From IMG/VR virus record IMGVR_UViG_3300030101_003119, positions 1-27,492 of that record: a DNA stretch of 27,492 nucleotides; one strand, 5' to 3'. The notes beneath the pieces were generated by a model, which searched no databases, was not told where the DNA came from, and worked only from the letters and a program-made list of their open reading frames with translations. This DNA is from a virus. The position numbers were made by a program, and so were the translations under genes. Position 1 is the first letter of the stretch. Every line of letters begins with the position of its first letter. Of the stretch, positions 1,858 through 26,531 are shown piece by piece.

Positions 1858-2541
1858 ATGGCAGTTAGTAATAGCAAAGATTTTGAATTAGATGTTGCTG
1901 AATACGTTGAAGAAGCATTTGAAAGATGTGGTCTACAATTACGAACTGGCTATGATTTAAAAACAGCTCAAAGAAGTATAAATCTTATGTTAGCTGATTG
2001 GGCTAATAGAGGTCTAAATCAATGGACTGTAAAAGAAAAAGTTCAGACACTTACAAAAGGTCAAACAACTTATGATTTGCCAGAAGGTGCAATTGATGTT
2101 TTAGGAGTTGCTAGTCGTAAGGTTGTAAATGGTAAAGATACGGATACAATTATACAGTCAATTGGTCGTAAAGAGTATTTACAAATACCTGATAAAACAG
2201 ACGAAAGTACACCTAGTCAATATTTTGTAGATAAACAAATTTCTCCTCAAATAAAAATATGGCCAACATCAAACAATAATAACGATAAAATTGTTTATAA
2301 TTATTTAGAAAGAATTGATGATGCTGATTACGGTTCAAATACTATGCAAGTACCTTTTAGATTTTATCCTTGTTTAACTAGTGGTCTTGCTTATTATTTG
2401 TCTATGAAAAGAGCTCCTGAAAGAACACAACTACTAAAAGCTGTTTATGAAGAAGAGTTTAAAAGAGCAGCAGAGCAAGATGAAGTAAGAGAAAGCTATC
2501 AAATAAGACCTTCTATGCGTAGCTATAGGAGGCTTTCATGA
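1858..2541 (+). CDS. P22 gp4-like head-to-tail connector / DNA-stabilisation protein
   Basis: The 227-residue product has the typical organisation of P22 gp4-type tail accessory (packaged-DNA stabilisation) proteins, which form the first ring beneath the portal. An N-terminal helical region includes SINLMLADWANRGLNQWTV, and a beta segment follows with the family-like KGQTTYDLPEGAIDVLGV. A polar central part ends at IKIWPTSNNNN, and a C-terminal helical part rich in Arg, Glu and Tyr follows. The ANRGLNQWTVKE plus KGQ-x-x-Y signature is the main evidence. It is followed, with a 4-base overlap (ATGA), by a zinc-ribbon gene and then a second adaptor-like gene, so the head-completion block is contiguous. 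A gp4-type connector points to a podovirus-like particle. The family name is recalled from sequence pattern, not computed. Confidence 0.75.
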   Translation: MAVSNSKDFELDVAEYVEEAFERCGLQLRTGYDLKTAQRSINLMLADWANRGLNQWTVKEKVQTLTKGQTTYDLPEGAIDVLGVASRKVVNGKDTDTIIQSIGRKEYLQIPDKTDESTPSQYFVDKQISPQIKIWPTSNNNNDKIVYNYLERIDDADYGSNTMQVPFRFYPCLTSGLAYYLSMKRAPERTQLLKAVYEEEFKRAAEQDEVRESYQIRPSMRSYRRLS

Positions 2542-2873
2542 CTTATGCCACGGGTAAAAAAGCTTTTGGACAATGCGATAGATGTGGTCAAAGATACTAT
2601 TTAAAAGAATTGCATAAAGAATGGAATGGTTTAAAGACATGTCCAAGCTGTTGGGAACCAAAACAACCTCAGCTAGAATTAAGAGTTAATGTTGTTGATC
2701 CAGAGGCTTTATACGAACCTAGACCAGATAAAGACATATCTGCGGGTGAAGGTGTAGTAAAAACAAGCAAAGTAAACGCTTTTACAGATAAAACATTTGA
2801 TCCTATTGGTTTTGCATTTTCTGTATCAGCAATAGATGCAAATGTTGGTACAGTTACGGTGGTAATAACATGA
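2538..2873 (+). CDS. Zinc-ribbon structural protein with VGTVTVV C-terminus
   Basis: The start ATGA overlaps the connector gene's stop. Residues 13-16 (CDRC) and 35-38 (CPSC) form a CxxC-x18-CxxC zinc ribbon. Between them is the segment HKEWNGLKTC, which I recognise from phage proteins placed beside head-tail connector genes, as is the following EPKQPQLEL and PRPDKDI. The last ~24 residues are unlike the rest: hydrophobic beta residues DPIGFAFSVSAIDANVGTVT then VVIT. This tail resembles the ends of the proteins at 13325 and 9258 and looks like an appended interaction module. The protein is 111 residues with no signal peptide. A structural or assembly role at the head-tail joint is likely; nucleic-acid binding by the ribbon is possible. 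The stop overlaps the next start (ATGA). Confidence 0.75.
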   Translation: MTYATGKKAFGQCDRCGQRYYLKELHKEWNGLKTCPSCWEPKQPQLELRVNVVDPEALYEPRPDKDISAGEGVVKTSKVNAFTDKTFDPIGFAFSVSAIDANVGTVTVVIT

Positions 2874-3541
2874 CATTAGATGAATTAAAAACATTAGTAC
2901 AAAATTATACACAAAACGATGAAACTGTTTTTGTAAGCACAATAAACGATTTTATTAAAAATGCTGAAGAAAGATTGTTAGAGTTAGTTCAAATTAATGT
3001 TTTTAGAAAAACTGCTAATGGTACAAGCACTGCTGGTAATAGATTTTTAAAAGGACCAGAAGATTATTTAGCTTCTTTTTCTTTAGCTGCAATAGATGCA
3101 AATGGTGATTATCATTATCTTGATAAAAAACATCCATCATTTATTCAAGCATATGATTATGACCCAACACAAACAGATTTAAGGGGAAGACCAAAGTATT
3201 ATGCAGATTTTGATGCTGGCAGTAATACAGAAAATGAAGACAATACATTTTTACTTTCACCTACTCCAGATGTTGATTACACAATGGAATTAAATTATTT
3301 ATATAGACCACCAAGTTTGACTGTTAATACATCTGGTACTTTTTTATCAGAAAATTCTAGAAATGCTCTTTTGTACGGAACATTAATTGAAGCATATATT
3401 TTTATGAAGGGAGAACCTACCTTACAACAAGAATATGAAAAAAGGTTTGCAGAAGAAATATCAAGACAAAAAAACTTATTTGAAGGTAGAGATAGACGTG
3501 ACGAATATCGTTTTGATAGTTTAAGAATAGAGGTGACTTAA
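2870..3541 (+). CDS. SU10-type adaptor-like head-tail protein
   Basis: The 223-residue product resembles the adaptor family known from phage SU10 and many marine phages. It has an N-terminal helical part (MTLDELKTLVQNYTQNDE through NAEERLLELVQINVFRK) and then the beta-rich centre. There the segments GPEDYLASFSLA, HPSFIQAYDYD, GRPKYYADFD, TFLLSPTPDVDYTMELNYLY and RPPSL follow one another in the order expected for the family. A C-terminal helix contains EAYIFMKGEP and QEYEKRFAEEISRQ. Such proteins form a dodecameric ring between portal and tail nozzle. The gene overlaps both neighbours (ATGA upstream, TAATG downstream), placing it in a tightly coupled connector operon. The P22 gp4-like protein upstream is a distinct second adaptor. 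Confidence 0.78.
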   Translation: MTLDELKTLVQNYTQNDETVFVSTINDFIKNAEERLLELVQINVFRKTANGTSTAGNRFLKGPEDYLASFSLAAIDANGDYHYLDKKHPSFIQAYDYDPTQTDLRGRPKYYADFDAGSNTENEDNTFLLSPTPDVDYTMELNYLYRPPSLTVNTSGTFLSENSRNALLYGTLIEAYIFMKGEPTLQQEYEKRFAEEISRQKNLFEGRDRRDEYRFDSLRIEVT

Positions 3542-4288: not shown

Positions 4289-7200
4289 ATGGCAATAGTT
4301 GTTAAAGATAGGGTAAAGGTTTCAACCACTACCACTGGTACTGGAACAATTACGCTTGGTTCCGCAGATCCTGGTTTTCAAACATTTTCAGTTGTTGGTG
4401 ACGGAAATCAAACATACTATGCAATTACGTCTGGAAATAACTTTGAAGTTGGTATTGGTACTTATACACATAGTGGAACGACTTTAAGTAGAGATACAGT
4501 TTTAGAAAGCTCTAATTCAGGAGCAAAAATAACATTAGCAGGTACATCAACAGTCTTTACAACTTATCCTGCTGAAAAATCATCATTTAGAAATGTTGGT
4601 ATTGCCAGAGATTATACTGCAAGTGGTTCAATAACAGCAGGCAAGCCATTAATTCTAAACGCTGATAATACTGTTACACAAGTTGGTACAACAACTGTTG
4701 CTTCAGGATTAGGAACATTATCTACAAATACTGTTAGTAATGCAGAAGAAGGTCAAGTTGCAATGGGTGCAACTAATCAATTTGTAAATTTATATAGAGT
4801 AGCAAATACAACTAATATGTATTTAACACCTAATACAATTTCATCAACTGATTTAAAAACAATAACTAGAGGTACAACTGCTAATTTTGATGCTGGAAAA
4901 GAAAGAAATGCAGGTATAATTTATGAACCAAACCAAGATAAATATGTGGTGATTGCATTAAATAGCAGTGATTATCTAACTGCTACAACTGTTACTTTTA
5001 GTGGTACAGGTTCAAGTGCTACATTAACACTTGGTACACAAACTGTAATAGATTCTAATGTGTGGTCAGGAGGTGGCTTTACAAATGCTAATATAACTTA
5101 CGATACAACTGCACAAAAAATTGTAGTATCAGGAACAAAATCAGGAGCAAATAATGGAATTTGTATTGTAATTAATTTAGATGGTACAACTTTTACTCAA
5201 GGTAGTAGAACAACTATACCTTTAAGCTCAACAAGTTTATACGCATCTGATGGAGGTATTTTATGTTCTTATTCTTCAACAGCAAATAAAGTGGTATTTT
5301 TACATTGTGAAAACAGTCAAAGTGATAGCACAGCAATTAATTATACAAATGTAGGTACAGTATCAGGAACAAGTATTTCTTTTGGTTCAGCTCAAGCTGT
5401 AGGAAATCCAGTAGATACTGGTTACTCTAATATGTGTTTAGATACTACTTTAAGCGTAGATAATAACGGTGTAATTGTAATTACTTATTTATCTCAATCT
5501 TACGCTTTATACTCACAATCAGCTACATTAAGCGGCACTACTTTAACATGGGGAAATACATCACAAATATCTAATATAACTGTTTTAAATGGTGCTTTTG
5601 GAGAATGTGGAAGTGTTAAAATAGCAAGTGGCAAAACTATAATTGTAAGAGCAACTAAGTCTGACAGTCCATCAAATGCTAACAAAGGTATTTTTTGTGT
5701 AATTACAGTATCAGGCACAAGTGTTACGAATGGTTCAGTACAAGAATTTTCCTCATCAGCTACACGCTATCCAAATGTAAGTAGTAATTATTCTAAAACT
5801 CAAGCTTTAATTAATTTTGGTTCAGGTAGTGAAAATAATATTATATTTCAAGAATCTGCACAAACAGGTGAATCTAACCTAACTAATGATAATTACTTCG
5901 GTATTGCATCTTCATCAGCAAGTGATACGGCAGCAGTAGGAGTAAATAGGCCAGGATCTATAAACATAGATCAAACAGGATTAACAGCAGGTAAAGATTA
6001 TTACGCAAAAGATGATGGTACTATTATTGAAAGAACAACCACATCAACTACAACTAATACATTTGCGACTGCAACAATAGAATCTTTAACAACTGTAAAT
6101 CCTTCTGCAAGTCAAAAAATAGATATAATTTATGATACGCATAATGATAAAGTATGGGCTTATTCAAAGGATAGTGATAATTCTAATTATCCAACGGTTG
6201 TTGTAGGAGATATTTCATCAGGAACAAGTATTACATGGGGAACACCTGTAACTGTTACAAGTAATTCTTATGCTCCAACAGGCATTCAATCACAAAGAAA
6301 TTTAGCAAGTGATGGAGCAGGAAATATACTTGTTGCTTATAGAGATACATCTAACGATTATGCAAGGGTAAAAGTTGGTAATTATTCTGGTACTAACAGT
6401 GCAACTTTTGGAAATGAGTTACAACCAGATAATATTAGCGCATTACAGACAATAGACATTGGTTACTGCTCATCGGCTAATTTGTGGTATATGTTCCATG
6501 GCAATAGCACATCAACTAAATGGGTATTGATGAAACAGAATAGTGGTAATAAAAACTTTGATAGTTCTGATGTAGGAACATTACATACTGGTAATGCAAC
6601 TGGTATAAACAATGTTTATACTACTAATAATAAAATAATTGTTGGATTAGATGCGACAGGTAATGGCAAATTTTATGTTTGTAATACGAGTGCAGATGGA
6701 TCAACAAATACTGGTTATACTTTAAATATAGGAACAGTACAAAATATAACTATCACAAACAATAGTAGTGCAGATGGTCGATTAAAAATAATAACAGATA
6801 CAACTAATAATAATTATATTTTAATAGATAGCACTGGTTCAACTGGTATGAATTGTTCTGTTATTACAGAGAGTAGTGGATCATTAACACAGTCAACTCC
6901 ACAGGGTGTTGCTAGCAGTAGTGGTACAATGGCAGGTAATACAGCTTTCTATAATCCTAGCGATCAAAAATTTTATGGAGCATATCAAGTACACACAAGC
7001 CCTTATGCTTGTAAAAATTATTTACTAACTGTATCTGGTACAACTTTTACTTTTGTTGATGGTGTTGATATGCCAAATGCAGATGATCGAGGTCTATGGA
7101 CACAAGGTATTTATATTGCTGATATAACTAAGGGTGTTTTTGTAGGTCAAACTAATAATGGTTACGATTTGTTAACAGCAATAATGAATATTAACTCAAC

Positions 7201-8779
7201 AACTTCAACCACAATTAACGCATCTCAGTTTGTCGGTACAGCACGATCAGGAACAGATTTAGAATTAGCAGAACCACCAACAGAATTAGTTGGAATAGCG
7301 AATGGTTCTATTACTAAAGGTAATGCTGTAGTGGTTAGAAGCGATGGTGATTTTGAAACAATTAAACTTGTGACCTCTACTCCAGTTACAAACACAGGTA
7401 CAGCCTCGCAAGGTTCTTTAGGAAATATTGACCCTTATACGCAAGATATGTTTTGCATGGCAGTAGCTTCTGATGGGGTTACTTATTGCTTTACATATCA
7501 AAATTCAACAAACAACTATCAAGCTTGTAAAATTGGCACAAGGTCAGGCGAAACTATAACGTGGGGTAGTGAAATAACTTTATCTACAGATACAAGTTCT
7601 GATTCTCATTTCTGCTCTTATGATGCAAATGCAAATGTTTTTATAACATCTTATGCGACAGGTAATACAATTAAATCTACTGCTGTATCTTTTTCAGGTA
7701 ATGCAGGAACAAAAGGCACAGAAGTTACAATGATGGACTTAGGTAGTTCTTCAGGTAGTCCACAATATCATTATCAACATTGGTACGACTCAACCAATAA
7801 AGTTACTGTATGTTGGGCTAATGGTGGTGTAAGCGGTAATGACACAAATAGAAGTTCAGCAGTTACATTAAATTTATCAGGAACAACAATAAATTTAGGT
7901 ACTTTATATGAAAATTCATCAGCAGGTGGTGATTTTCAAAAAGGTTGTGATATTACAGGTGGCAAACACGTTTGCTATTGGAAAAATTCTAGTGGCTATG
8001 CAAGTGTAATGACAATGACTGTAGCTAGTGATTATTCTATTACTTGGGGAACACCATTAGTTATAAACAGTTCTAATGCAGGTTTTTGTAATCCTATATA
8101 TAACCCTAATTACGAAAATAAAGTTATACTTGCAGGAAAAATAAAAACTTCTAATAATTATTTTAGTTATGCAGGTTTAACCATTAGTGGAACATCAATA
8201 ACAGCTTCTAATTTTTCTGATGGAAACATTAATAACGCATCATCTTATGTAGAATCAGGCGGTAACGTAGGTGTTTATTCAAATTATAGTGGAAATTATT
8301 GTTTTGTTTATCAAACATATAGTCCATATTATTCAACATATAGGTTTGCCACAACAACTGATGGATTGTCATTAACAGTAGCAGCAGCAGTAACAACAAG
8401 CGGACATGGTAACAATCAATTTTATGCAGGAGCTGTTGCAAGTGATGTTGATGCTGTTGTTGTTGAAAATCATAGAGATGGCGCAAATACTCAAATGGTT
8501 TATTATTGTTTTAATCCAACTTTTTCTTTTACTACAACATCACAAGCAACAAATTTAACAACTAATAATTTCTTAGGTTTTGCTCAACAGACTGTCGCAA
8601 ATAGAGAAGATGTTAAAGTTGCAATAATAGGTCAAACTGATAATAACCAATCGTCATTATCAACAGCTACACAATATTATCTAAATAACACAACAGGAGC
8701 CTTACAATCTACAGCAGACAATATCTCAGTCGTAGGTGGTACTGCTTTATCTAGTACAAAAATTTTAATTAAATCATAA
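4289..8779 (+). CDS. Giant tail fibre with three tandem beta-propeller-like modules
   Basis: This 1496-residue product is the largest in the window. Residues 1-105 (AIVVKDRVKVSTTTTGTGTI, then FSVVGDGNQTYYAI and GTYTHSGTTLSRDTVLESS) match a virion-attachment domain I recall from the N-termini of many marine phage fibres. Three modules of about 445 residues follow, each made of short blades of the type SGTSITWG-x-x-V and ending in a similar cap: NYFGIA at 535, SQFVGTA at 979 and NNFLGFA at 1426, followed in the first and third by LTAGKDYYAKDDGT or TQYYLNNTTGAL. About five to six blade signatures can be counted per module, suggesting tandem propellers. The C-terminus GTALSSTKILIKS is typical for such fibres. 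It probably binds a host surface glycan or protein. The Shine-Dalgarno is weak; the start is fixed by the conserved N-terminus. Confidence 0.8.
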   Translation: MAIVVKDRVKVSTTTTGTGTITLGSADPGFQTFSVVGDGNQTYYAITSGNNFEVGIGTYTHSGTTLSRDTVLESSNSGAKITLAGTSTVFTTYPAEKSSFRNVGIARDYTASGSITAGKPLILNADNTVTQVGTTTVASGLGTLSTNTVSNAEEGQVAMGATNQFVNLYRVANTTNMYLTPNTISSTDLKTITRGTTANFDAGKERNAGIIYEPNQDKYVVIALNSSDYLTATTVTFSGTGSSATLTLGTQTVIDSNVWSGGGFTNANITYDTTAQKIVVSGTKSGANNGICIVINLDGTTFTQGSRTTIPLSSTSLYASDGGILCSYSSTANKVVFLHCENSQSDSTAINYTNVGTVSGTSISFGSAQAVGNPVDTGYSNMCLDTTLSVDNNGVIVITYLSQSYALYSQSATLSGTTLTWGNTSQISNITVLNGAFGECGSVKIASGKTIIVRATKSDSPSNANKGIFCVITVSGTSVTNGSVQEFSSSATRYPNVSSNYSKTQALINFGSGSENNIIFQESAQTGESNLTNDNYFGIASSSASDTAAVGVNRPGSINIDQTGLTAGKDYYAKDDGTIIERTTTSTTTNTFATATIESLTTVNPSASQKIDIIYDTHNDKVWAYSKDSDNSNYPTVVVGDISSGTSITWGTPVTVTSNSYAPTGIQSQRNLASDGAGNILVAYRDTSNDYARVKVGNYSGTNSATFGNELQPDNISALQTIDIGYCSSANLWYMFHGNSTSTKWVLMKQNSGNKNFDSSDVGTLHTGNATGINNVYTTNNKIIVGLDATGNGKFYVCNTSADGSTNTGYTLNIGTVQNITITNNSSADGRLKIITDTTNNNYILIDSTGSTGMNCSVITESSGSLTQSTPQGVASSSGTMAGNTAFYNPSDQKFYGAYQVHTSPYACKNYLLTVSGTTFTFVDGVDMPNADDRGLWTQGIYIADITKGVFVGQTNNGYDLLTAIMNINSTTSTTINASQFVGTARSGTDLELAEPPTELVGIANGSITKGNAVVVRSDGDFETIKLVTSTPVTNTGTASQGSLGNIDPYTQDMFCMAVASDGVTYCFTYQNSTNNYQACKIGTRSGETITWGSEITLSTDTSSDSHFCSYDANANVFITSYATGNTIKSTAVSFSGNAGTKGTEVTMMDLGSSSGSPQYHYQHWYDSTNKVTVCWANGGVSGNDTNRSSAVTLNLSGTTINLGTLYENSSAGGDFQKGCDITGGKHVCYWKNSSGYASVMTMTVASDYSITWGTPLVINSSNAGFCNPIYNPNYENKVILAGKIKTSNNYFSYAGLTISGTSITASNFSDGNINNASSYVESGGNVGVYSNYSGNYCFVYQTYSPYYSTYRFATTTDGLSLTVAAAVTTSGHGNNQFYAGAVASDVDAVVVENHRDGANTQMVYYCFNPTFSFTTTSQATNLTTNNFLGFAQQTVANREDVKVAIIGQTDNNQSSLSTATQYYLNNTTGALQSTADNISVVGGTALSSTKILIKS

Positions 8780-9257: not shown

Positions 9258-10271
9258 ATGTCCTATGGATTTGCTACATATGCTCAAGATACTTTTTCTT
9301 CTCCAGGAGTAACAGATGTAAATGTATCTGTTACAGGATTTTCTTTAACATCTTCTTTAGGAACTGCTTCTGCTGGTGAATTTGTAACTGTATTGCCTAC
9401 AGGTGTTCAAGGACAAACACAACTCAATAGTGTAACTACTCTCTTTAGTAGAGTAGATGGTGTTTTTGGAGTACAAGCAGCTTTCCAAACAATAGGGCCT
9501 TATTCAGTTCAAGCTGTTGGAAATGAAACTGTATTTGTTACTGGTAATAGTATTGCTGCTACAGCATCTTTAGGTAATGAATCAATAATATTAGGTCCTA
9601 GTATATTTCCAAGTGGAATTGCAATGGCTTCAGCTCTTGGTGATGAGTCATTAAGTGTTGGAATAACTGCTAAACCAAGACAAAATGAAACATTTAAAGT
9701 AAAAGTTAGTGGTAATGAAGGTTTAGGAAACAAATATTACATTGATGGTAATTTTGCTACAAACTTTACTAATTTTAACATGCCAACAGCTTTTCATGTT
9801 GGTTTTACTTATGTGTTTGATCAAACGGATAATTCAAACAACAATCATCCGTTAAGATTATCTACAACTCCTAATGGAACATGGAATGGTGGCGTTGAGT
9901 ATACAGATGGTGTAGTTAAATCTGGTACACCTGGATCTACAGGATCAACACAAATAACTATAACAGAATCAACTCCTTCTACTCTTTATATATATTGTAC
10001 TCAGCATTCTGGTATGGGAATGGCTATATCTATTTTACCAAGTGTTAATTTAGGAATGACATCTTCACAAGGAAGTGTTAGTGTAAGCACTGGTGTTGGT
10101 GTATTCCCAACAGGGGTAAACACAACAGGAGATATTGGTTTCGTTCAAATGAACTTTGGTTCTGATATATTCCCAACAGGACTAAGTATGACAGGAAGTG
10201 TTGGCAATATATCTCTTTGGCAAGAGGTAGATACAAGTCAAACTCCAAATTGGACAAGGATTGCTGCATAA
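9258..10271 (+). CDS. Beta-repeat structural protein with inserted plastocyanin-like copper-site domain
   Basis: The 337-residue product has three parts. Residues about 20-150 and 260-337 are short beta repeats of the form FPTGLSMTGSVGNISL, typical of marine phage tail proteins, ending in WQEVDTSQTPNWTRIAA. Between them, residues about 154-260 form a different domain: KYYIDGNF, HVGFTYVFDQTDNSNNNHPL, then TLYIYCTQHSGMGM. His197, Cys247, His250 and Met255 have the ligand order His...Cys-x2-His-x4-Met, the same spacing as the type 1 copper site of plastocyanin (Cys84, His87, Met92). A cupredoxin-like fold is therefore likely; whether copper is bound is untested. The gene lies between two fibre genes and its stop overlaps the S74 fibre start (TAATG), so it is probably a virion protein. 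The Shine-Dalgarno is weak. Confidence 0.75.
   Translation: MSYGFATYAQDTFSSPGVTDVNVSVTGFSLTSSLGTASAGEFVTVLPTGVQGQTQLNSVTTLFSRVDGVFGVQAAFQTIGPYSVQAVGNETVFVTGNSIAATASLGNESIILGPSIFPSGIAMASALGDESLSVGITAKPRQNETFKVKVSGNEGLGNKYYIDGNFATNFTNFNMPTAFHVGFTYVFDQTDNSNNNHPLRLSTTPNGTWNGGVEYTDGVVKSGTPGSTGSTQITITESTPSTLYIYCTQHSGMGMAISILPSVNLGMTSSQGSVSVSTGVGVFPTGVNTTGDIGFVQMNFGSDIFPTGLSMTGSVGNISLWQEVDTSQTPNWTRIAA
9717..10037 (+). other. Cupredoxin-like domain (His-Cys-His-Met) within the tail protein
   Basis: This is the domain-encoding segment for residues about 154-260 of the 337-residue protein. Ligand codons are CAT 9846-9848 (His197), TGT 9996-9998 (Cys247), CAT 10005-10007 (His250) and ATG 10020-10022 (Met255). 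The C-terminal loop CTQHSGMGM matches the plastocyanin loop in spacing. Flanking sequence on both sides is the protein's ordinary short beta repeat, so the domain looks inserted. Confidence 0.65.
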
Positions 10272-11488
10272 TGGCTACATTTAGTAATTTAGGTATAAAA
10301 TTAATTGGCACTGGTGAAGAATCAGGTACTTGGGGTACAAGTACAAATACAAATATGGAATTATTAGACCAAGCAATATCTGGTTATGTTAGTCATGCAC
10401 TATCAGATGCTAATGCAACTTTAGCTATTTCTGATGGTTCAAGTTCAACTGCAAGAAATAAATATATTAATTTTACTGGAACTTTATCAGCAGAAAGAAC
10501 AATAACTTTAAGCCCAAATGATTTAGAAAAAACTTGGTATGTAAAAAATGCTACAACAGGCGGTTTTAGTTTAGTATTTAAACAAGGTTCATCTGGAACA
10601 ACAGTAACAGTACCAAATGGTATAACAGCTATGATTTTTTCTGATGGTCTTGGAGCAACAAACGGTAATATAAAAAATGGTATAGGAACTCTTTTAACAG
10701 AAGGCGTTATTCCAGATGCCGATAATACACGTGATTTAGGTTCTGCAACAAATGAATGGAAAGATTTATACATTGATGGCATTGCTTACTTAGATCAAGT
10801 TGATATTGATTCTGGAACTATAGATGGTGTAGATGTCGGTTCTAATGCACCTGCTACTAATTTAACAGTAGACAATGTTAATATTAATGGAAATGATATA
10901 CAATCTACAACAAATCAATTAGCTTTTGTTACAGGTGGTTCAGCTGAAAGAATACGAATAGATAGTTCAGGTAACATATTCTATGGTGGAAGAACAACAA
11001 CCAGTGCTACAACTAATGCAACATCTTTTTTAGATACAGATACAACATATAAATCTTTTCAAGGTAGTGGTACACCACACATGACATTTTTAAATGGTGC
11101 AACAACTGTAGGCACTATTACAAATAATGGTACAAATGCGTCTTACAATACAACTTCTGATTACAGAAAGAAAAATGAGCTTGGTTATATAGAAGACGCA
11201 TGTGAAAGATTAATGAGCCTTAGACCTATTTTATACGAGTTTAAAGGTATTATTAATCCTACAAAACAAGAAGGTTTTATAGCTCACGAAGTACAAGAAA
11301 TTGTACCTAGTGCAGTAACCGGTGACAAGGACGCTGTTGATCCAGTAACAGACGCACCAATTTTACAGCAATTAGATCAATCTAAGCTGGTTCCTTTACT
11401 TACTCAGGCATTAAAAGATGCCCTCTGGAAAATCGAAAAACTCGAAGAGAAAGTGGAAGAATTAGAAGATGCCGTTAGCAAAGTTTAA
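10271..11488 (+). CDS. Tail fibre/spike with C-terminal Peptidase_S74 intramolecular chaperone
   Basis: The start chosen is ATG 10271 (MATFSNLGIKLIGTGEESGT), which overlaps the previous stop in TAATG; the upstream in-frame ATG at 10217 lies deep inside the preceding gene. The 405-residue product has an N-terminal part typical of marine fibres, then DLGSATNEWKDLYIDG and AERIRIDSSGNIFYGG beta-repeat units. From Ser296 the C-terminus is an S74 chaperone: TSDYRKKNELG, then RLMSLRPILYEFKG, EGFIAHEVQEIVPSAVTGD and a closing coiled coil LWKIEKLEEKVEELEDAVSK. In this family the domain trimerises the fibre and then cuts itself off next to the conserved Ser-Asp of SDxRxK, leaving the mature fibre. The motif is intact here. 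The 3' end overlaps the next gene by 20 bases. Confidence 0.85.
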   Translation: MATFSNLGIKLIGTGEESGTWGTSTNTNMELLDQAISGYVSHALSDANATLAISDGSSSTARNKYINFTGTLSAERTITLSPNDLEKTWYVKNATTGGFSLVFKQGSSGTTVTVPNGITAMIFSDGLGATNGNIKNGIGTLLTEGVIPDADNTRDLGSATNEWKDLYIDGIAYLDQVDIDSGTIDGVDVGSNAPATNLTVDNVNINGNDIQSTTNQLAFVTGGSAERIRIDSSGNIFYGGRTTTSATTNATSFLDTDTTYKSFQGSGTPHMTFLNGATTVGTITNNGTNASYNTTSDYRKKNELGYIEDACERLMSLRPILYEFKGIINPTKQEGFIAHEVQEIVPSAVTGDKDAVDPVTDAPILQQLDQSKLVPLLTQALKDALWKIEKLEEKVEELEDAVSKV

Positions 11489-13325
11489 CTTTAGACCAGG
11501 AATAAACAAAGAAACAACAGATTACACAAATGAAGGCGGCTGGACTGATGGCAATCTTGTTCGTTTTCAAGCTGGTTTACCACAAAAAATAGGCGGATGG
11601 GAAAAATACTCTGACAATGAATTTGTTGGTAGTTGCAGAACTTTGTTTGAGTGGTCTGATTTTGATGGCAATCAGTATGTAGGTGTAGGAACTAATCGTA
11701 AATTTTATATTTTAAATGATGGTATTTATTATGATATTACGCCGTTAAGAGCTACACAAACTGTAAATAATCCTATGACAACAAACGGAACAACATCTGT
11801 AAGGTTTACAGTTCCTAGTCACGGTTGTGCAACTGGTGATTTTGTAACTATATCTGGCCTTTCCGGACCTGTTGATGGTATTCCAATAACAGAAATTAAT
11901 GCAAATCATACGGTAGCTGTTGTAGATTCTAATAATTTTGATATAACAGTAAGTACGACTGCTTCTGGTTCGACTTCCAATACTGGAGGCTCTCTAACAT
12001 TTAAATTTGAAATTCCTGTAGGAGAAGACCAACAATCCTTATTAGGTGGTTGGGGAGCTAGCACATGGAATGCTGGTGCTTGGGGTTATGGTACTCCTTC
12101 TGCTGAATTTAGGTTATGGAATCAGGATAACTACGGTGAGGATCTTATTATTAATAATAGGGGTGGAGCTATTTACAAATGGGATGAGTCTGGAGGGACG
12201 ACTTCCCGTGCCACCATCATTACGTCTGACGCAAGCGCAAATCTCGCACCAAACAAAGCCAATCAAATTATCGTATCTGAAAGAGATGGGCATGTAATAG
12301 CATTAGGTGTAGACCCTATATCAGGGTCTTCAAGGACAGGAACAATAGATCCTATGGTAATAGGAATATCTAATCAAAACAGTGCTGTAGATTGGGAAAT
12401 AAGAACAGATGGTACATCTACAGCTGATCAAATAGAATTAAATTTAGGCTCAGAAATTATTGGTGGTCTACAAACAAGACAAGAAATATTAGTTTGGACC
12501 GACATCGCACTGTTTTCATTGCGATTCGTAGGCGGACCCCTTCCCTTTACCACTTCTCTCCTCGCTAGGGGTCCGTCGATTTTAGGCCCTAATGCTTCTG
12601 TTAATGGAGCTGATGCAACATTTTGGATGGATAAATCTAATTTCTATGTATACACAGGTTCTGTCCAAACCTTGCCATGTTCTGTTAAAGAGTATGTTTT
12701 TGGTGATCTTAATTATGACGAACGATATAAAATATTTGGTTTTTCTAATCAAACATTTGACGAAATAGGATGGTTTTATCCGTCTGCTGGTTCTGCTGAA
12801 ATAGATAGATATGTTACTTATGATTATGTGCAAAGAACATGGTCTATAGGTAAATTAGAAAGAACGGCTTGGATTGATTATGGTATTTATCAAAAACCAA
12901 GAGCAGCTCAAGGATCTTCTAGTGGTTATATATATTCTCATGAAACTGGTTTTGATGATGATGGTTCTCCAATGGATGGTGTATTTATACAGTCTGGAGA
13001 TATAGACATACAAGACGGTGAGCAGTTTGCTTTTGTTAGTAGGGTTATACCAGATTTTAAGTTTATAGGTATAGATGGAGCAGGTCCACAAACTGTTGAT
13101 TTACTTGTAAGAATGCGTGATGCTCCAGGTGGATCATTAGTAACAGACGCTACTGTAGCTGTTGACTCATCAACACAAGTTAAAAATATTAGAGGACGCG
13201 GTAGACAAATTGCTTTAAAAGTATCTAGTCATAATGATAATTCTGTTAATACAGCAAATAGATTAGGTGTAGGATGGAGGCTAGGTTCTACACGATTAGA
13301 TGTTAAGCCAGATGGGAGACAATAG
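11469..13325 (+). CDS. Conserved 618-aa tail structural protein (beta-rich)
   Basis: The product begins MPLAKFNFRPGINKETTDYT and continues with NEGGWTDGNLVRF, KIGGWEKYS and YVGVGTNRKFYI, an N-terminal pattern I recognise from a family conserved in marine podovirus-like genomes and repeatedly found among tail genes. A Ser/Thr-rich insert (about residues 95-180; VRFTVPSHGCATGDFVTISG) looks like an immunoglobulin-like addition. The central conserved stretch RFVGGPLPF-TTSLLARGPSILGP is followed by GADATFWMDKSNFYVY and a C-terminal half with FIQSGDIDIQDGEQFAFVSR and RGRGRQIALKVSS. A beta-propeller-like tail hub or nozzle component is plausible but not shown. The gene overlaps its upstream neighbour by 20 bases and ends in TAGTG shared with the next start. 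Locally GC-rich patches and two hairpins lie inside it. Confidence 0.7.
   Translation: MPLAKFNFRPGINKETTDYTNEGGWTDGNLVRFQAGLPQKIGGWEKYSDNEFVGSCRTLFEWSDFDGNQYVGVGTNRKFYILNDGIYYDITPLRATQTVNNPMTTNGTTSVRFTVPSHGCATGDFVTISGLSGPVDGIPITEINANHTVAVVDSNNFDITVSTTASGSTSNTGGSLTFKFEIPVGEDQQSLLGGWGASTWNAGAWGYGTPSAEFRLWNQDNYGEDLIINNRGGAIYKWDESGGTTSRATIITSDASANLAPNKANQIIVSERDGHVIALGVDPISGSSRTGTIDPMVIGISNQNSAVDWEIRTDGTSTADQIELNLGSEIIGGLQTRQEILVWTDIALFSLRFVGGPLPFTTSLLARGPSILGPNASVNGADATFWMDKSNFYVYTGSVQTLPCSVKEYVFGDLNYDERYKIFGFSNQTFDEIGWFYPSAGSAEIDRYVTYDYVQRTWSIGKLERTAWIDYGIYQKPRAAQGSSSGYIYSHETGFDDDGSPMDGVFIQSGDIDIQDGEQFAFVSRVIPDFKFIGIDGAGPQTVDLLVRMRDAPGGSLVTDATVAVDSSTQVKNIRGRGRQIALKVSSHNDNSVNTANRLGVGWRLGSTRLDVKPDGRQ
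12311..12329 (+). other. 7-bp inverted repeat inside the 618-aa gene
   Basis: AGACCCT (12311-12317) and AGGGTCT (12323-12329) are perfect reverse complements around a 5-base loop. No U-run follows, so it is not a rho-independent terminator. It encodes the segment around VDPISGSS. Confidence 0.6.
12531..12577 (+). other. GC-rich 10-bp stem with pyrimidine-rich loop inside the 618-aa gene
   Basis: CGGACCCC (12533-12540) and GGGGTCCG (12568-12575) are perfect reverse complements. As RNA, two more pairs (one G-U) extend the stem to 12531-12577. The 27-base loop 12541-12567 is almost all C and T. The region encodes the conserved residues GGPLPFTTSLLARGPS and uses codons such as CTC and CCC that are scarce in the rest of the gene. 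No U-run follows. Confidence 0.6.
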
Positions 13326-13648
13326 TGCCAAGATTTGATATAAGACAAGCCTTTTCTTCTCTTCCTAGATTTAATCAAGAAGAGATAGATGCTAATACTT
13401 TAAACAGATTAGTTCGTACAATTGAACAAAATCTTTTTCAATTAGACTTAAACGTAGTACCGTCTTATACTACTGCACAAAGAAATAGTAGAAAATTTAG
13501 TCCAGGTGGGTTAATATTTAATACAACGGTGGAAGTACACCAAGCGTACGATGGCAGTGCTTGGAGAAATTTATATTTACCTGTGGTTTATCCGACAGGT
13601 TTAAGTTTAACAAGTTCCGTAGGAACAGTAACAGTGGTGACATCGTAA
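13325..13648 (+). CDS. Small structural protein ending in a VGTVTVV module, 107 aa
   Basis: Translation most likely begins at GTG 13325, which shares a base with the previous TAG (TAGTG). The N-terminal 60 residues are helical and polar (PRFDIRQAFSSLPRFNQEEI, then NTLNRLVRTIEQNLFQLDLN). A short beta region follows with SPGGLIFNTTVEVHQAYDGS and AWRNLYLPV, wording familiar from phage baseplate and fibre subunits that bind the next fibre part. The final residues YPTGLSLTSSVGTVTVVTS repeat the beta unit found in the 337-residue protein and at the end of the zinc-ribbon protein. It is probably a small tail structural subunit. No signal or membrane segment. Its stop overlaps the next ATG (TAATG). 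Confidence 0.65.
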   Translation: MPRFDIRQAFSSLPRFNQEEIDANTLNRLVRTIEQNLFQLDLNVVPSYTTAQRNSRKFSPGGLIFNTTVEVHQAYDGSAWRNLYLPVVYPTGLSLTSSVGTVTVVTS

Positions 13649-21627: not shown

Positions 21628-23174
21628 TGAATAGATTAATTGAACCACCAAGAGTAGGAAGAACTATAGGTGATTTTGGTTATAATTCTTCTTCTTTACC
21701 AAGATTTGGTGGAGGAAGTAGCCGTAGACTAAGAGGTATACCATCTTACGGTTACGATAAACCTATATCTAGCTATAAAGTTGGTAGCGGTCTTGTAAGA
21801 CCTAGTGCATTGCCTTCTTCATTAACACCGGCAGGAGGTATAGTTTTTGCTGGTGCTCCAGGTGCTGTTAGTGATTATACAATTGGACAAGAAACTTATG
21901 ATGTAGGTGGTGCTGCAAAAACACCTTCAACTGGAGCTATGCTTGGAGATGCTTTAAAACTTGCTGCTGTAAGCACTGGAATAGGAACTGGTTTAAATGC
22001 TTTAGGATTGCCAACTTTTGGAATGCCAGTAGTAAAAGATTTAGATAAAATAAAATTTGGAAGTTTATTTAATACGGGTAATAGTGCAAAAGGTTTAGGA
22101 TCAGCCTTTACATCTGGTATTGGAAGTTTAGGTAATCTTATTCAAAATACAATGTCTCAAGCAGGTCCAGCTGGAGTAATAAGTTTAAATTCAGCAGCAG
22201 GTATGAGTGCTCCTGGAATAGCTGGTACTGGTGTTCTTTATGATGCAAATATGAATCCAATACAACCAAGTTTTATTGATGGAGTTAAAAGTTTCTTTGG
22301 TTATGGCCCAGAAAATACAGCTAATGCTGCTGTTAAATTAAATCCAGCTTATGGACCACAAGATACTGGATTTTTGTCAAGTGTAGGAAACTTCTTTAAT
22401 GCACCTAGATCTTTTATTCCGGGTGTAAGTGGTACAGGAGCCTCAGCAACAGGTTTTGGTGGAGGTGGAGTACCAGGTCAAGGAATAACAAGCATTGGCA
22501 ATGTTCTTGGAACTGTCGGTGGTGTATTATCTTTAGCTGATTTTGTAAAAGATCCATCATTAGCATCAGGCCTTGGAACCTTAGCGGGAGCTGGAGCATC
22601 TGGTATTGGTGCTTTCTCAGGTCTTGCTACAGCAGCTCCTTATCTTGCCGCAGCAGCTTTAGTTGCTGGTTTATTAGGTATAGGTAACAAAAAACCATCT
22701 AATAAAACAGGCTATGCCAGTGTAGATTTTGATAATTTACAATCTCAAAGTTACAGCATTGGTGATTACAAAAGAAAAAAAATGAATAAAGAAAATGTAG
22801 AATTTACAAAAAAATTATTAGATCCAATTATACCTTATATAGAAGAAATAGAAAAAAAATATGGTTTTGATTTAAAAGGTGACTTGCAAATAAGTTATGG
22901 TGGTCGAGATGGTTTATTTTATAACATAGGAGATATAGATCAAGAAGGGTTATCTAGAAGAGACATGTTTTTAAATAGAGTAGATTACTATGATGGTAGA
23001 GATCAAAATGTTTATAAAAAAAGGTTTAATACAGATGAAGCAGGTTTAACTAAATTTTATGACTCCATATTAAAAGATTTAGAAAATATAGCTCAAAATA
23101 AAATAACTAATCTTAGACAATATAGAGGAATACAAAGACAGGTTCCTCAAGGTATATTTAGTTATGGTGTATAA
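21627..23174 (+). CDS. Gly/Ala-rich internal virion protein with C-terminal globular domain, 515 aa
   Basis: The product starts with a polar, Arg/Gly/Tyr-rich N-terminus (MNRLIEPPRVGRTIGDFGYN), followed by some 280 residues dominated by Gly, Ala, Ser, Pro and Asn with many short hydrophobic patches. A clear hydrophobic helix pair lies at about 332-353 (GLATAAPYLAAAALVAGLLG). Residues about 360-515 then form a compact charged domain: YASVDFDNLQSQSYSIGDYK, then LLDPIIPYIEEIEKKYGFDL, LQISYGGRDGLFYNIGD and QEGLSRRDMFLNRVDYYDGR. I do not recognise that domain by name. The membrane-prone segment plus globular tail resembles ejection proteins, and it is the last gene of that run. Start and stop both overlap neighbours (TAATG at each end). 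Confidence 0.6.
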   Translation: MNRLIEPPRVGRTIGDFGYNSSSLPRFGGGSSRRLRGIPSYGYDKPISSYKVGSGLVRPSALPSSLTPAGGIVFAGAPGAVSDYTIGQETYDVGGAAKTPSTGAMLGDALKLAAVSTGIGTGLNALGLPTFGMPVVKDLDKIKFGSLFNTGNSAKGLGSAFTSGIGSLGNLIQNTMSQAGPAGVISLNSAAGMSAPGIAGTGVLYDANMNPIQPSFIDGVKSFFGYGPENTANAAVKLNPAYGPQDTGFLSSVGNFFNAPRSFIPGVSGTGASATGFGGGGVPGQGITSIGNVLGTVGGVLSLADFVKDPSLASGLGTLAGAGASGIGAFSGLATAAPYLAAAALVAGLLGIGNKKPSNKTGYASVDFDNLQSQSYSIGDYKRKKMNKENVEFTKKLLDPIIPYIEEIEKKYGFDLKGDLQISYGGRDGLFYNIGDIDQEGLSRRDMFLNRVDYYDGRDQNVYKKRFNTDEAGLTKFYDSILKDLENIAQNKITNLRQYRGIQRQVPQGIFSYGV

Positions 23175-24106
23175 TGAAAAATACTTTACGTGACTTTCTA
23201 ATTATTTTTGTATCAGCAGCGGCTGTTAGTAGTTTGCTTTTAGCCGAGGACAGCAATATAACGAATACAACTACGACTACATCAACTGTCACTAGCAATA
23301 ACACCAACACAAACACTAATTATAATCAAAATACTAATGTTTCTAACAACACCAATACTAATAATACAACAATTAATTCAACGACTAATTCTACTGCAAC
23401 AAATACCAACAACAATACTTCTGTTGTAACAAGCACTGTTAATCAAACACAAAATGTTAACAACACTTCTTTGATAACTAACAACTCTACAAATCAAAAT
23501 AACAACACCAATGTTAACACTTCAACAACTTCTAATACCAATAATAACAACAATGTTTCGACATCAAGTTCTGACGTTACAACTAATAATCAAAATTTTA
23601 ATACAAATAACAATACTTCACAGAATGTAAATACAAACACATCAACAAGCAATAGTTCACAAAAGGTAACACAAAGGGTTAAATCTCCACCTCCGAGCGC
23701 CGTGGCTCCTTCCATAATGTCATATAGTCAAGACCTATGCACATCAGGAGCTAGTTCAGCAGTCCAAACTCAATTCTTTGGTGTATCAACAGGTAGAAGT
23801 GTGCGAGACGAAAACTGCGAAAGACTAAAGCTTAGTAAAGGCCTCTACGATATGGGAATGAAAGTTGCAGCTGTTGCATTACTTTGTGAGGACGCTCGCG
23901 TGTGGCGTTCGATGATGCAAGCCGGTAGTCCTTGTCCGTATAAAGGAAAGATAGGTGAAGAAGCTCGTATAGCATGGGAACAAAACCCAGAAGAAAGACC
24001 AGATTGGGAAGAAGTAAAAAAAGAATTAACTGGTTATGAAGTAAAAGCATACAAAAAGAAAGATTTCTGTAACAGGTATCCTAAGCACAAAATATGTTTA
24101 GGCTAA
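23174..24106 (+). CDS. Exported Asn/Thr-rich protein with six-cysteine C-terminal domain
   Basis: Residues 1-24 are a Sec-type signal peptide: basic MKNTLRD, hydrophobic FLIIFVSAAAVSSLLL, then A-E-D as a plausible cleavage region. Residues about 28-165 are almost entirely Asn and Thr with some Ser and Gln, a low-complexity extended tract with many NxT/S triplets. Residues 171-310 form a conserved-looking domain that I recall from marine phage genomes: SPPPSAVAPSIMSYSQDLCT, RDENCERLKLSKGLYDMGMK, VAAVALLCEDARVW, GSPCPYKGKIGEEARIAWEQ. It holds Cys189, 215, 238, 254, 299 and 308, an even number consistent with disulfides in the periplasm. Function is unknown. The start overlaps the previous stop (TAATG), and the next gene starts 13 bases before its end, suggesting an expressed pair. 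Confidence 0.7.
   Translation: MKNTLRDFLIIFVSAAAVSSLLLAEDSNITNTTTTTSTVTSNNTNTNTNYNQNTNVSNNTNTNNTTINSTTNSTATNTNNNTSVVTSTVNQTQNVNNTSLITNNSTNQNNNTNVNTSTTSNTNNNNNVSTSSSDVTTNNQNFNTNNNTSQNVNTNTSTSNSSQKVTQRVKSPPPSAVAPSIMSYSQDLCTSGASSAVQTQFFGVSTGRSVRDENCERLKLSKGLYDMGMKVAAVALLCEDARVWRSMMQAGSPCPYKGKIGEEARIAWEQNPEERPDWEEVKKELTGYEVKAYKKKDFCNRYPKHKICLG
23255..23668 (+). repeat. Low-complexity Asn/Thr-coding tract
   Basis: These codons (about residues 28-165 of the exported protein) are mainly AAT/AAC and ACT/ACA/ACC, with many short degenerate repeats such as AATACTAAT and AACAACACC. Codon mixing argues for selection on the protein composition and not a recent DNA repeat expansion. Confidence 0.7.
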
Positions 24107-26016
24107 TAACACTACTATTTTTAACAACATCTGCATGGGCAACAGACCCTACCTTTACTGTTGGTACAGAAAGCATAATAAACATACAAAACTCAGGCAC
24201 AGCTCTTAATCTTGGAGATGATTCGATGAGTGGTATGAAAGATATTGGTTTTGATTTTACTTTTTATGATCAAACATTTGACCAGGTAAATATATCTATG
24301 AACGGTTTCTTTACGTTTCAGTCAAACTTTAATGTATCAAGACAAAGAAACTATTTATCAGAAGCAATACCAGCTACTTCATTTAATTACAGTGTATTTC
24401 CAATGTGGACGGATTTAATTAACAGAAACGGTACTCAAAATCCTTATATTCAGACATTTGGTAATACATCTGACACAGATCAATATTTTGTTATTGGATG
24501 GTACAATGCAAAAGAATACAGCAATCAATTACAAAATACTTTTGAAGCTATTTTATACGAAGGCACAAATGCAATTGAATTTCGTTACGATAAAATACAA
24601 GTCCGCTCACATAATATAACCATAGGAGTTCAAGGCAATAACGAAGCAACAACTTATTTACGTTATTTAGATAACAACAATACAACATATATTGAGACAG
24701 ATGACTTTAGTCTTACTACAGCAGAAGTTGTAGACGAATCATTTAGTAATCTTTCTTCCCAGTGTTTAGTAGATTCTGCTTACTCAGAGCTTTGTAATGT
24801 CTATGATTTAACAAATGACTCTAACGATGATAACTTTCTTTATGGAATAGATGAGGATATAATATTTGGATATGATGAAGATGAAACAATATTTGGGTTT
24901 AGCACAGATGAAGACGAACAGTTATTTTCTTTTTCAGTGGGCTTTGAAGATGATAACGATTGGAACGATGATGGCAGCAACATTGATACTATTTTTATTC
25001 TTAGCGACACTGAACCTGATCAGGGATTTAATTTAGAAGATGACTCATTACTTATACATATTGATAGCGAGTACGATATTGAGTTTGTGGATGCTCTTCC
25101 GGATTTGGAAGAAGAGTTTTTAGAAATAGTAGATATAGAAACAGAAGAAGTAGTTCAATTCTTTGAAGAAGTTCAAGAAAGAGTTGAAGAAGACTTTCTT
25201 GTGTTTGTAGAAGAAGAAGTTATTGAAGAAGAAATTGCTGAAGTTATAGAAGAATTATTTGATGAAGAAGAAGCAATCGAGGAAGAAGAAGAATTACTTG
25301 ACGAATCAATTGATGAAATAAGTCCGGAAGAAATAGAAGAAGAAGTAGAAGAGAATCAATTTAGAAGAAGAAATATATCAACGACAAGGAATACTATCTC
25401 AAACCTTGTTACAAGCGTTGTAAGAGGAAGCTATGCGTCTTCAGGTAGTAGCAACTCAAATAACAATAACGGCTCTGTAAACGTCTCTGGTACAACAGTA
25501 GGGAATGTTAGTTCACCTACTGCTTCAAATCAAGTTGCTGCTGATCAAGTTCAAACTAATAATGTGTTACAATCTATTACAATTATGCCTATGCCTGGTA
25601 TTGATAATACACCTTCTGTTGCCATGGCCGAAGTTCAAATAACAACTATGGAGAATCAAATAGAAAGCGTTACATCTTCTGTTATGACTGCATCAGAAGC
25701 AGATCAAGTAGCAGATCAAATTGTAGCTCAAAATATACAAGATCAACAAGAAGCAAATGAAAGAAGTCAAAGTGAATCTGGTGAGTATAATGCGCAAGGA
25801 CAAGCTAACTTATTAGCATATATGGGTTACTCATCAGGTTTTAATGATTATCAAAGTTTAGACATACCTGATGGATCTAGTTGGTATGAACCTAAAGACA
25901 TATATGCAAATGTTACTTTGAGTGATAACGTAGATGTATATAATAATTTGGTAGGAACTAATTTAAATCAACAATCAAATTTAATACAAACACAAAACAT
26001 GGAGTTTTTTAGATAA
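24094..26016 (+). CDS. Exported nidogen-like / hyperacidic protein, 640 aa
   Basis: Residues 1-16 are a signal peptide (MFRLITLLFLTTSAWA, Ala-x-Ala cleavage). Residues about 45-195 form a beta domain resembling NIDO (nidogen-like) adhesion domains: IGFDFTFYDQTFDQVNISMN, VFPMWTDLIN, YFVIGWYNAKEY, NTFEAILYEGTNAIEFRY, HNITIGVQGNN. Cys224 and Cys234 are the only cysteines noticed. Residues about 246-421 are extremely acidic, first with repeated units such as YGIDEDI, FGYDEDET and FGFSTDEDE, then long Glu runs broken by Val, Ile and Phe. RRRN ends this part. The C-terminal ~200 residues are Ser/Asn/Gln-rich, then helical, ending NNLVGTNLNQQSN...MEFFR. It starts within the previous exported gene and ends in TAATG with the next. 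Envelope location is likely; the activity is unknown, and the NIDO call is tentative. Confidence 0.65.
   Translation: MFRLITLLFLTTSAWATDPTFTVGTESIINIQNSGTALNLGDDSMSGMKDIGFDFTFYDQTFDQVNISMNGFFTFQSNFNVSRQRNYLSEAIPATSFNYSVFPMWTDLINRNGTQNPYIQTFGNTSDTDQYFVIGWYNAKEYSNQLQNTFEAILYEGTNAIEFRYDKIQVRSHNITIGVQGNNEATTYLRYLDNNNTTYIETDDFSLTTAEVVDESFSNLSSQCLVDSAYSELCNVYDLTNDSNDDNFLYGIDEDIIFGYDEDETIFGFSTDEDEQLFSFSVGFEDDNDWNDDGSNIDTIFILSDTEPDQGFNLEDDSLLIHIDSEYDIEFVDALPDLEEEFLEIVDIETEEVVQFFEEVQERVEEDFLVFVEEEVIEEEIAEVIEELFDEEEAIEEEEELLDESIDEISPEEIEEEVEENQFRRRNISTTRNTISNLVTSVVRGSYASSGSSNSNNNNGSVNVSGTTVGNVSSPTASNQVAADQVQTNNVLQSITIMPMPGIDNTPSVAMAEVQITTMENQIESVTSSVMTASEADQVADQIVAQNIQDQQEANERSQSESGEYNAQGQANLLAYMGYSSGFNDYQSLDIPDGSSWYEPKDIYANVTLSDNVDVYNNLVGTNLNQQSNLIQTQNMEFFR
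24829..25356 (+). repeat. Hyperacidic coding tract (Asp/Glu-rich)
   Basis: This encodes residues about 246-421 of the 640-residue protein. The first part repeats (Y/F)G(I/Y/F)xxDE units. The second is mostly GAA codons, with runs of GAAGAAGAA. Hydrophobic residues recur between Glu clusters, so an amphipathic or beta-like acidic structure is as possible as disorder. Confidence 0.7.
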
Positions 26017-26264: not shown

Positions 26265-26531
26265 ATGAAAAATATATTACCTAAACTTCAACAGTACATA
26301 ACCATAGTGGGGGTAATCACGGCCATTGGCGGTGGCTTCTACACTTGGGGTCAGTTTAATTTGCGTCTTGATAATATAGAAAAGAAAAAAATTAAATCAG
26401 TAAATATTGTGCCGTTGCAAGAATCTATTGCTGAGTTAACAACAAAAGTTGATAGCTTAGAAAAAAGATTAGACAGAAATGAAGATAGGATTGATAAGCT
26501 TGGCAATAATGACAATCCTTTAGCTATGTAA
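26265..26531 (+). CDS. Membrane-anchored coiled-coil protein, 88 aa (possible spanin/holin partner)
   Basis: Residues about 10-29 are one hydrophobic helix (QYITIVGVITAIGGGFYTWG). From about residue 37 to 80 there is a charged coiled coil (LDNIEKKK and ESIAELTTKVDSLEKRLDRN). An N-terminal anchor followed by a coiled coil is the plan of inner-membrane spanins and of small holin-associated proteins; it is the reverse order of the helix-then-membrane miniprotein at 1002. No outer-membrane lipoprotein partner was recognised. It is the last plus-strand gene, and its TAA (26529-26531) overlaps the 3' end of the opposing ATPase gene. Confidence 0.6.
   Translation: MKNILPKLQQYITIVGVITAIGGGFYTWGQFNLRLDNIEKKKIKSVNIVPLQESIAELTTKVDSLEKRLDRNEDRIDKLGNNDNPLAM

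What the first reader, a model, noticed from the sequence alone, without database searches (positions are those of the whole stretch)
2799..2873. The same C-terminal beta unit ends or fills three different structural proteins
The zinc-ribbon protein ends PIGFAFSVSAIDANVGTVT-VVIT, the 107-residue protein (13325-13648) ends PTGLSLTSSVGTVTVVTS, and the 337-residue protein (9258-10271) carries several PTGLSMTGSVGNISL-like units. The protein motif is similar, but the codons differ between the first two, so it is not a recent DNA duplication. It may be a common docking strand that joins these parts in the particle.
Basis: partly seen in the sequence, partly recalled or inferred. Interest (0 to 1): 0.55.

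Follow-up and report, generated by a model that had tools for sequence, protein, structure and literature searches.

The report
Shared tail strand in phage proteins
Two small, probably structural proteins of a probably marine virus of bacteria end in the same short, strongly kept strand, a piece of a 22-residue repeat that also fills a fibre-like protein; it looks like an assembly and extension element, but what it binds is unknown.

Summary
The resemblance is real but uneven. The 107-residue tail and five stretches of the 337-residue protein belong to one ~22-residue repeat family that unit-only searches of Pfam, PHROGs and the PDB did not recognise. The zinc-ribbon tail has only the unit's second half and does not match the unit profile alone (3.5 bits). 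Its last nine residues, however, match the 107-family ends better than 1404 other C-termini. Units (8 bits or more) were absent from 279 ORFs of five control phages. In 344 loci all 68 units ending within four residues of a C-terminus lie in the zinc-ribbon (27) or 107 (41) families. Zinc-ribbon genes mostly sit between two adaptor-like genes; 107 genes follow a hub-like gene.

A docking strand joining all three proteins is only partly supported. Close relatives keep the unit motif, then add a Pro/Ser linker and a cupredoxin-like domain; others hold two to six units there. So the unit looks like a fixed beta element whose far end can be extended, probably at the particle surface. Binding partner and oligomeric state are untested; AlphaFold gave no confident structure for tail or units.

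The parts
2538..2873 (+). 111-residue zinc-ribbon protein; gene between two SU10_adaptor-like genes
   Evidence: ORF; CxxC pairs at residues 13-16 and 35-38; ribbon region predicted at pLDDT about 80, residues 70-111 under 50
2844..2870 (+). conserved C-terminal strand VGTVTVVIT (second half of the 22-residue unit)
   Evidence: scores above all 1404 other closed C-termini; 7-mer mean pairwise identity 0.61 against 0.20 just upstream
13325..13648 (+). 107-residue fibre-like protein directly after the hub-like gene
   Evidence: PHROG tail-fibre match E 3e-7; follows the hub gene in 147 of 148 places, redundant loci counted
13583..13645 (+). one full C-terminal unit VVYPTGLSLTSSVGTVTVVTS
   Evidence: profile match 24.0 bits, family held out but for 1 of 222 training windows
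9258..10271 (+). 337-residue protein with units on both sides of a cupredoxin-like domain
9321..9377 (+). unit in the 337-residue protein, residues 22-40, 20.6 bits
9531..9590 (+). weak unit, residues 92-111, 8.2 bits
9603..9656 (+). unit, residues 116-133, 12.4 bits
10098..10157 (+). unit, residues 281-300, 15.6 bits
10167..10226 (+). unit, residues 304-323, 25.6 bits
9681..10037 (+). cupredoxin-like domain, residues 142-260
   Evidence: H..C-x2-H-x2-M in 28 of 28 non-redundant domains kept from 111 domain hits; moderate Foldseek and VIA-align matches to plastocyanins and copper nitrite reductases
1858..2541 (+). adaptor-like protein A, upstream neighbour
   Evidence: Pfam SU10_adaptor E 4.6e-12
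2870..3541 (+). adaptor-like protein B, downstream neighbour
   Evidence: Pfam SU10_adaptor E 4.6e-23
11469..13325 (+). hub-like 618-residue protein upstream of the 107 gene
   Evidence: phmmer to 9nwi_Y (6 chains in the entry), E 4.2e-12; PHROG 3287 virion structural protein

Best explanation
The shared element is one unit, or the second half of one, of a beta-strand repeat of about 22 residues (consensus v-t-v-t-p-T-G-v-s-a-T-s-s-v-G-t-v-t-v) found in a group of probably marine phages. In fibre-like proteins such as the 337-residue one it occurs in tandem. In two small proteins whose genes lie beside the adaptor and hub genes it closes the chain as a single strongly kept strand. Most likely this strand pairs with another beta edge in the particle, either a copy of itself in a neighbouring subunit or an adaptor or hub surface, and so fixes the C-terminal half of the protein. 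The far end of the strand then faces solvent, because relatives of the zinc-ribbon protein continue past it with a cupredoxin-like domain, in half of the cases after a proline-rich linker, or with more units. Shown: the repeat, its terminal position, its conservation, the gene neighbourhood and the extended forms. Inferred: that it is a strand in the virion, that it pairs, with what, and that its far end is exposed.
For: Profile match of the 107 tail and C-terminal specificity. 618 units in 187 of 3384 proteins with a modal spacing of 22 residues. The terminal 7-mer is better conserved than the ribbon body: 0.61 against 0.37 mean pairwise identity; 36 of 41 lineages have it. Fixed neighbourhood: 191 of 206 upstream and 187 of 206 downstream adaptor-like genes, and 147 of 148 hub genes before the 107 gene, redundant loci counted. 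Of 20 long zinc-ribbon proteins with a cupredoxin-like domain, 10 have a unit at 8 bits or more before it, 9 have the looser half-unit motif and 1 a variant; 10 of the 20 have a proline-rich linker. In near-identical contigs the 107 protein is 100% identical while the zinc-ribbon protein ends after the unit in one and continues past it in another. The tail has no confident structure alone.
Against: The zinc-ribbon tail of this window does not match the unit profile by itself. 13 of 102 short zinc-ribbon proteins have another end, and 16 of 41 long ones have no recognised unit. 10 of 60 closed 107-family proteins end differently, for example TNGDITLTL. The fetched regions of 023Pt_psg01 and ct2os315 carry a zinc-ribbon homologue and no unit. 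Low AlphaFold confidence is compatible with plain disorder. That these proteins are in the virion rests on gene position and PHROG matches, not on mass spectrometry.
Confidence: 0.5

Rival explanations
1. A general modular stalk or decoration repeat, comparable in use to phage Ig-like domains: units are gained, lost and multiplied as spacers in exposed proteins, and the single terminal copies are just the shortest stalks, without a specific partner.
For: Unit number at the zinc-ribbon C-terminus varies among relatives: half a unit here, and at 5 bits or more 1 in DSL-LC04, 2 in L155 and 6 in CRP-902 (4 in CRP-902 at 8 bits or more). The 337 relatives L079 and L081 lack the middle domain but keep unit stretches. 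Other relatives have unrelated C-terminal sequence in place of the unit.
Against: The terminal heptapeptide is more conserved than the folded ribbon, and terminal units are confined to two families. A passive spacer should drift.
Confidence: 0.28
2. One reading: one common docking strand, bound by one acceptor type, joins all three proteins in the particle.
For: Same terminal 9-mer type in two families on the same contigs; tails match better within than between genomes by BLOSUM score (observed 286, permuted mean 253, p 0.0096, 10 lineages).
Against: By identity of the 7-mer the match is p 0.076 with 9 lineages; lineages are not independent and no phylogenetic correction was made. The 337-residue protein has internal tandem units and a different end. 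The strand can be internal in the zinc-ribbon protein.
Confidence: 0.15
3. Chance or low complexity: short runs of V, T, S and G look alike in beta-rich proteins.
For: The zinc-ribbon tail alone is only 3.5 bits against the unit profile.
Against: 0 units in shuffles and 0 in 279 control ORFs; 0 of 1404 other C-termini reach the tail score; present in 36 of 41 lineages.
Confidence: 0.04

Closest known systems
Ig-like domains on phage structural proteins (Fraser et al. 2006; only its reference entry seen, in a passage of PMC13320782)
   Same: small beta modules attached to head, neck and tail proteins, swapped between proteins, often C-terminal (recalled)
   Different: here the unit is about 22 residues, too small for an Ig fold (recalled size), with no Pfam match, and in two families it is a single conserved terminal strand
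Donor-strand or beta-augmentation tails in virions (recalled, no call)
   Same: short C-terminal strand predicted unstructured on its own
   Different: no acceptor identified here; the strand may be followed by further domains
Cupredoxin (plastocyanin / copper nitrite reductase) fold, for the domain found after the unit
   Same: moderate fold match and complete H-C-H-M set
   Different: sits in phage structural proteins; sequence match to the family is weak
SU10_adaptor neck proteins (Pfam PF24175)
   Same: both neighbours of the zinc-ribbon gene belong here
   Different: the zinc-ribbon protein itself does not match it; it is a separate small protein between them

Membership tests
22-residue unit family (defined here) | profile match at 8 bits or more with the model trained without the zinc-ribbon and 107 families | tested here: met
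   107 protein 24.0 bits, held out but for 1 of 222 training windows; 337 protein five stretches, but its repeats seeded the model
22-residue unit family (defined here) | same threshold for the zinc-ribbon tail of the window | tested here: not met
   3.5 bits, E 7.4; only the second half is present; 38 of 146 zinc-ribbon family members do pass
C-terminal strand shared by zinc-ribbon and 107 families | terminal 9-mer scoring above unrelated C-termini | tested here: met
   20.8 against a maximum of 13.2 in 1404 others
Ig-like domain | Pfam Ig-type match | tested here: not met
   no Ig-type family at E up to 1 for the 337 and 107 proteins or for five unit-bearing relatives
Zinc ribbon | two CxxC pairs about 20 residues apart | tested here: met
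   C13-C16 and C35-C38 in the window; 91 of 146 family members
Zinc ribbon | match to a curated zinc-ribbon model above its cut-off | tested here: not met
   best Pfam 13.6 bits (cut-off 29.2), best NCBIfam 14.2 bits (cut-off 31.3)
Zinc ribbon | binds zinc | not testable with these tools
   -
Cupredoxin | type-1 copper ligand set H, C-x2-H-x2-M | tested here: met
   28 of 28 non-redundant domains; that this set is the copper site is recalled
Cupredoxin | fold | tested here: inconclusive
   no Foldseek match at E 0.001 or better; best E 4.6e-3 (2dv6 nitrite reductase), plastocyanins prob 0.87-0.96; titin and antibody chains also listed; VIA Z about 6 over 96 residues for plastocyanin, under the Z 8 guide, with a non-copper fold (3nji) at Z 6.7
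Cupredoxin | binds copper | not testable with these tools
   -
Docking strand | pairs with an acceptor sheet in the virion | not testable with these tools

The most novel reading that the evidence does not exclude
The terminal strand VG-x-VT-V/I is an assembly tag recognised by the adaptor or hub ring of a large group of probably marine short-tailed phages. The same tag brings two unrelated small proteins onto the tail, and its outward end serves as a socket onto which these phages graft exposed domains, including a copper-protein-like one.
Probability: 0.15. Interest if true: 0.65.

Novelty: new variant of a known kind. Interest (0 to 1): 0.42.

Why it matters
Named relatives that share the zinc-ribbon gene include phages of SAR11 and Roseobacter, and the small proteins of this structural block have no assigned role. 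A short conserved strand that marks two of them, and past which whole domains can be added, gives a concrete, testable handle on how such particles are assembled and decorated. The repeat was not recognised by Pfam, PHROGs or the PDB in unit-only searches, and the unit-bearing proteins of CRP-902, HTVC023P and HTVC027P found here are annotated as hypothetical.

Tried and rejected
Reversed sequences as a null: rejected, since the unit is nearly palindromic (146 units in reversed proteins). PDB by sequence for the zinc-ribbon, 107 and unit-only proteins: nothing significant. The plastocyanin hit of the 337 protein (E 0.31) did not recur with the 28-sequence profile. PHROG 693 (tail fibre) matches residues 12-250 of the 337 protein, which includes units, but the middle domain alone also matches it and unit-only proteins do not. 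Gene conversion between the two tails: identical residues share codons in 15 of 45 own and 95 of 321 cross comparisons, so no sign of it. Unit-rich queries by tblastn found only the source phages, their close relative or nothing; BLAST's low-complexity filter may hide repeats, so absence is not shown. A one-acceptor reading from tail covariation was downgraded after the second measure did not repeat the first.

Papers: search listings; passages by 'find' in PMC13320782, PMC9599517, PMC13299392, PMC10149686 and PMC13386823; none read whole. Cupredoxin + phage + tail fiber gave 0 papers; plastocyanin + phage + tail fiber gave 5, seen only as a listing; phage + neck + zinc ribbon + adaptor + virion gave 0. 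No wider claim of absence from print is made.

Selection and dropped rows: the 344 loci were fetched with the zinc-ribbon, 107 and 337 proteins and their relatives as queries, plus six phage-record regions, so unit frequencies are enriched; several loci are the same contig, so the place counts are redundant. The hold-out missed two distant 107 homologues, one of which gave 1 of 222 training windows. In some searches zinc-ribbon proteins over 130 residues were dropped, and also pairs without the tail pattern. The figure is inflated by anchoring on V/I/L-G-x-V/I-x-V/I; 36 of 41 lineages having that pattern is the cleaner result. IMG/VR contigs carry no habitat label here; 'marine' is inferred from named relatives, and DSL-LC04 is from a lake and ct2os315 from a spring.

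Full report
What was checked. The window is the head-neck-tail part of a 34.7 kb virus record. The zinc-ribbon gene lies between two genes with Pfam SU10_adaptor matches, E 4.6e-12 and 4.6e-23. The 107 gene directly follows a 618-residue protein whose best solved relative is 9nwi_Y, E 4.2e-12; a table in PMC13299392, seen as one passage, names that entry as a head-to-tail adapter of Pseudomonas phage Pa223.

Is the motif real? I trained a unit profile on proteins outside the zinc-ribbon and 107 families and then tested those families. The 107 tail of the window is a clear match (24.0 bits), while the zinc-ribbon tail is not (3.5 bits). A later check found that 1 of 222 training windows came from a distant 107 homologue, which I judge too little to make that match. 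The 337 protein has five stretches at 8 bits or more, but its repeats seeded the model. Shuffled proteins gave none; reversed ones gave 146, because the unit is nearly palindromic. In a separate test, the terminal 9-mer of the zinc-ribbon protein outscored all 1404 other closed C-termini against a matrix built from 107-family tails. The two best of those others are 100-residue proteins which, in loci L114 and L118, again directly follow a hub-like gene and align with the 107 family.

How specific is it? In 344 loci, 618 units (8 bits or more) occur in 187 of 3384 distinct proteins, most often 22 residues apart. The controls T7, lambda, T4 (75-115 kb), P-SSP7 and HTVC010P gave 0 units in 279 ORFs. 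Of 68 units ending within four residues of a C-terminus, 27 are in the zinc-ribbon family, 41 in the 107 family and none elsewhere. The loci were fetched with these proteins, so the frequency is enriched; the control result and the terminal confinement are the informative parts. Five unit-bearing relatives had no Pfam match beyond one at E 0.3, and they or their unit stretches had no PHROG match at E up to 0.1; two of them had no NCBIfam match better than E 0.12, and the one unit-only protein tried had no PDB match.

What do relatives show? Of 143 closed distinct zinc-ribbon family members, 89 are short and end in the strand, 13 are short with other ends, and 41 are long. Of the long ones, 20 carry a cupredoxin-like domain; before it, 10 of these have a unit at 8 bits or more, 9 a looser half-unit motif and 1 a variant, and 10 of the 20 have a proline-rich linker. 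Contigs L222, L305 and L306 on one side and L224, L297 and L299 on the other have identical 107 proteins and zinc-ribbon bodies 91-95% identical over residues 1-66. In the second group the protein ends after the unit; in the first it goes on through linker and domain. L318 and L320 show the same (bodies 98%, 107 proteins 100% identical). Other long members have different C-terminal sequence: 16 with no recognised unit and 3 with only a half-unit pattern. CRP-902 has six unit stretches at 5 bits or more there. The cysteine pairs of the ribbon are present in only 91 of 146 members. The terminal seven residues are better kept than the ribbon: mean pairwise identity 0.61 against 0.37 for residues 1-46 and 0.20 and 0.16 for the stretches just before the tail, with the anchoring caveat given under Tried and rejected.

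Structure. AlphaFold gives the ribbon (about residues 10-43) at pLDDT about 80 and nothing confident from residue 70 on. In the 337 protein only the middle domain is confident; the unit stretches lie at mean pLDDT 22-34. The middle domain matches copper nitrite reductase and plastocyanins moderately, along with some unrelated beta folds, and 28 of 28 non-redundant copies keep H..C-x2-H-x2-M. PHROG places this domain in tail fibre and baseplate families. I regard it as cupredoxin-like; copper binding is untested.

Do the two tails share a partner? 57 loci hold both genes (36 distinct pairs). Within a genome the tails resemble each other slightly more than across genomes by one measure (p 0.0096, 10 lineages), less by another (p 0.076, 9 lineages). 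Identical residues do not share codons clearly more often within genomes (15 of 45 against 95 of 321). So the likeness is maintained at protein level, without evidence of recent copying, and the evidence for a common acceptor is suggestive at most.

Conclusion. The most likely role is a beta-strand that fixes the end of these small proteins in the neck or tail region and can be extended outward. The idea that it joins the three proteins to each other or to one acceptor remains open and less likely.

Noticed in passing
window 9681-10037; also L003, L120, L126, L155, L222 and others: A cupredoxin-like domain with a complete H-C-H-M set occurs in fibre-like proteins and at the C-terminus of zinc-ribbon neck proteins of related phages; 101 proteins in the fetched set match it at E 1e-3.
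   Followed up: partly
zinc-ribbon family, e.g. L117, L118: The paired ribbon cysteines are incomplete (for example SDRS for CDRC) in 55 of 146 family members, so metal binding is probably not universal in this protein.
   Followed up: partly
window 11469-13325, residues 101-177: The hub-like protein has a region with a weak E1_FCCH match (E 0.027, under its cut-off); PHROG 28581, which matches the zinc-ribbon protein, also touches this region (E 0.54), hinting at another shared beta module.
   Followed up: no
window 10217-11488: Fibre protein ending in a Peptidase_S74 chaperone domain (Pfam E 3.8e-8).
   Followed up: no
window 4289-8779: 1496-residue Ser/Thr/Asn-rich protein with no Pfam match at E 0.01.
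   Followed up: no
window 23174-26016: Two adjacent proteins, one Asn/Thr-rich and one with a long acidic stretch, both starting with a hydrophobic segment; no Pfam match at E 0.01.
   Followed up: no
window 26524-27429: Reverse-strand AAA_25 ATPase gene where the GC skew changes sign, perhaps the start of an oppositely oriented replication module.
   Followed up: no
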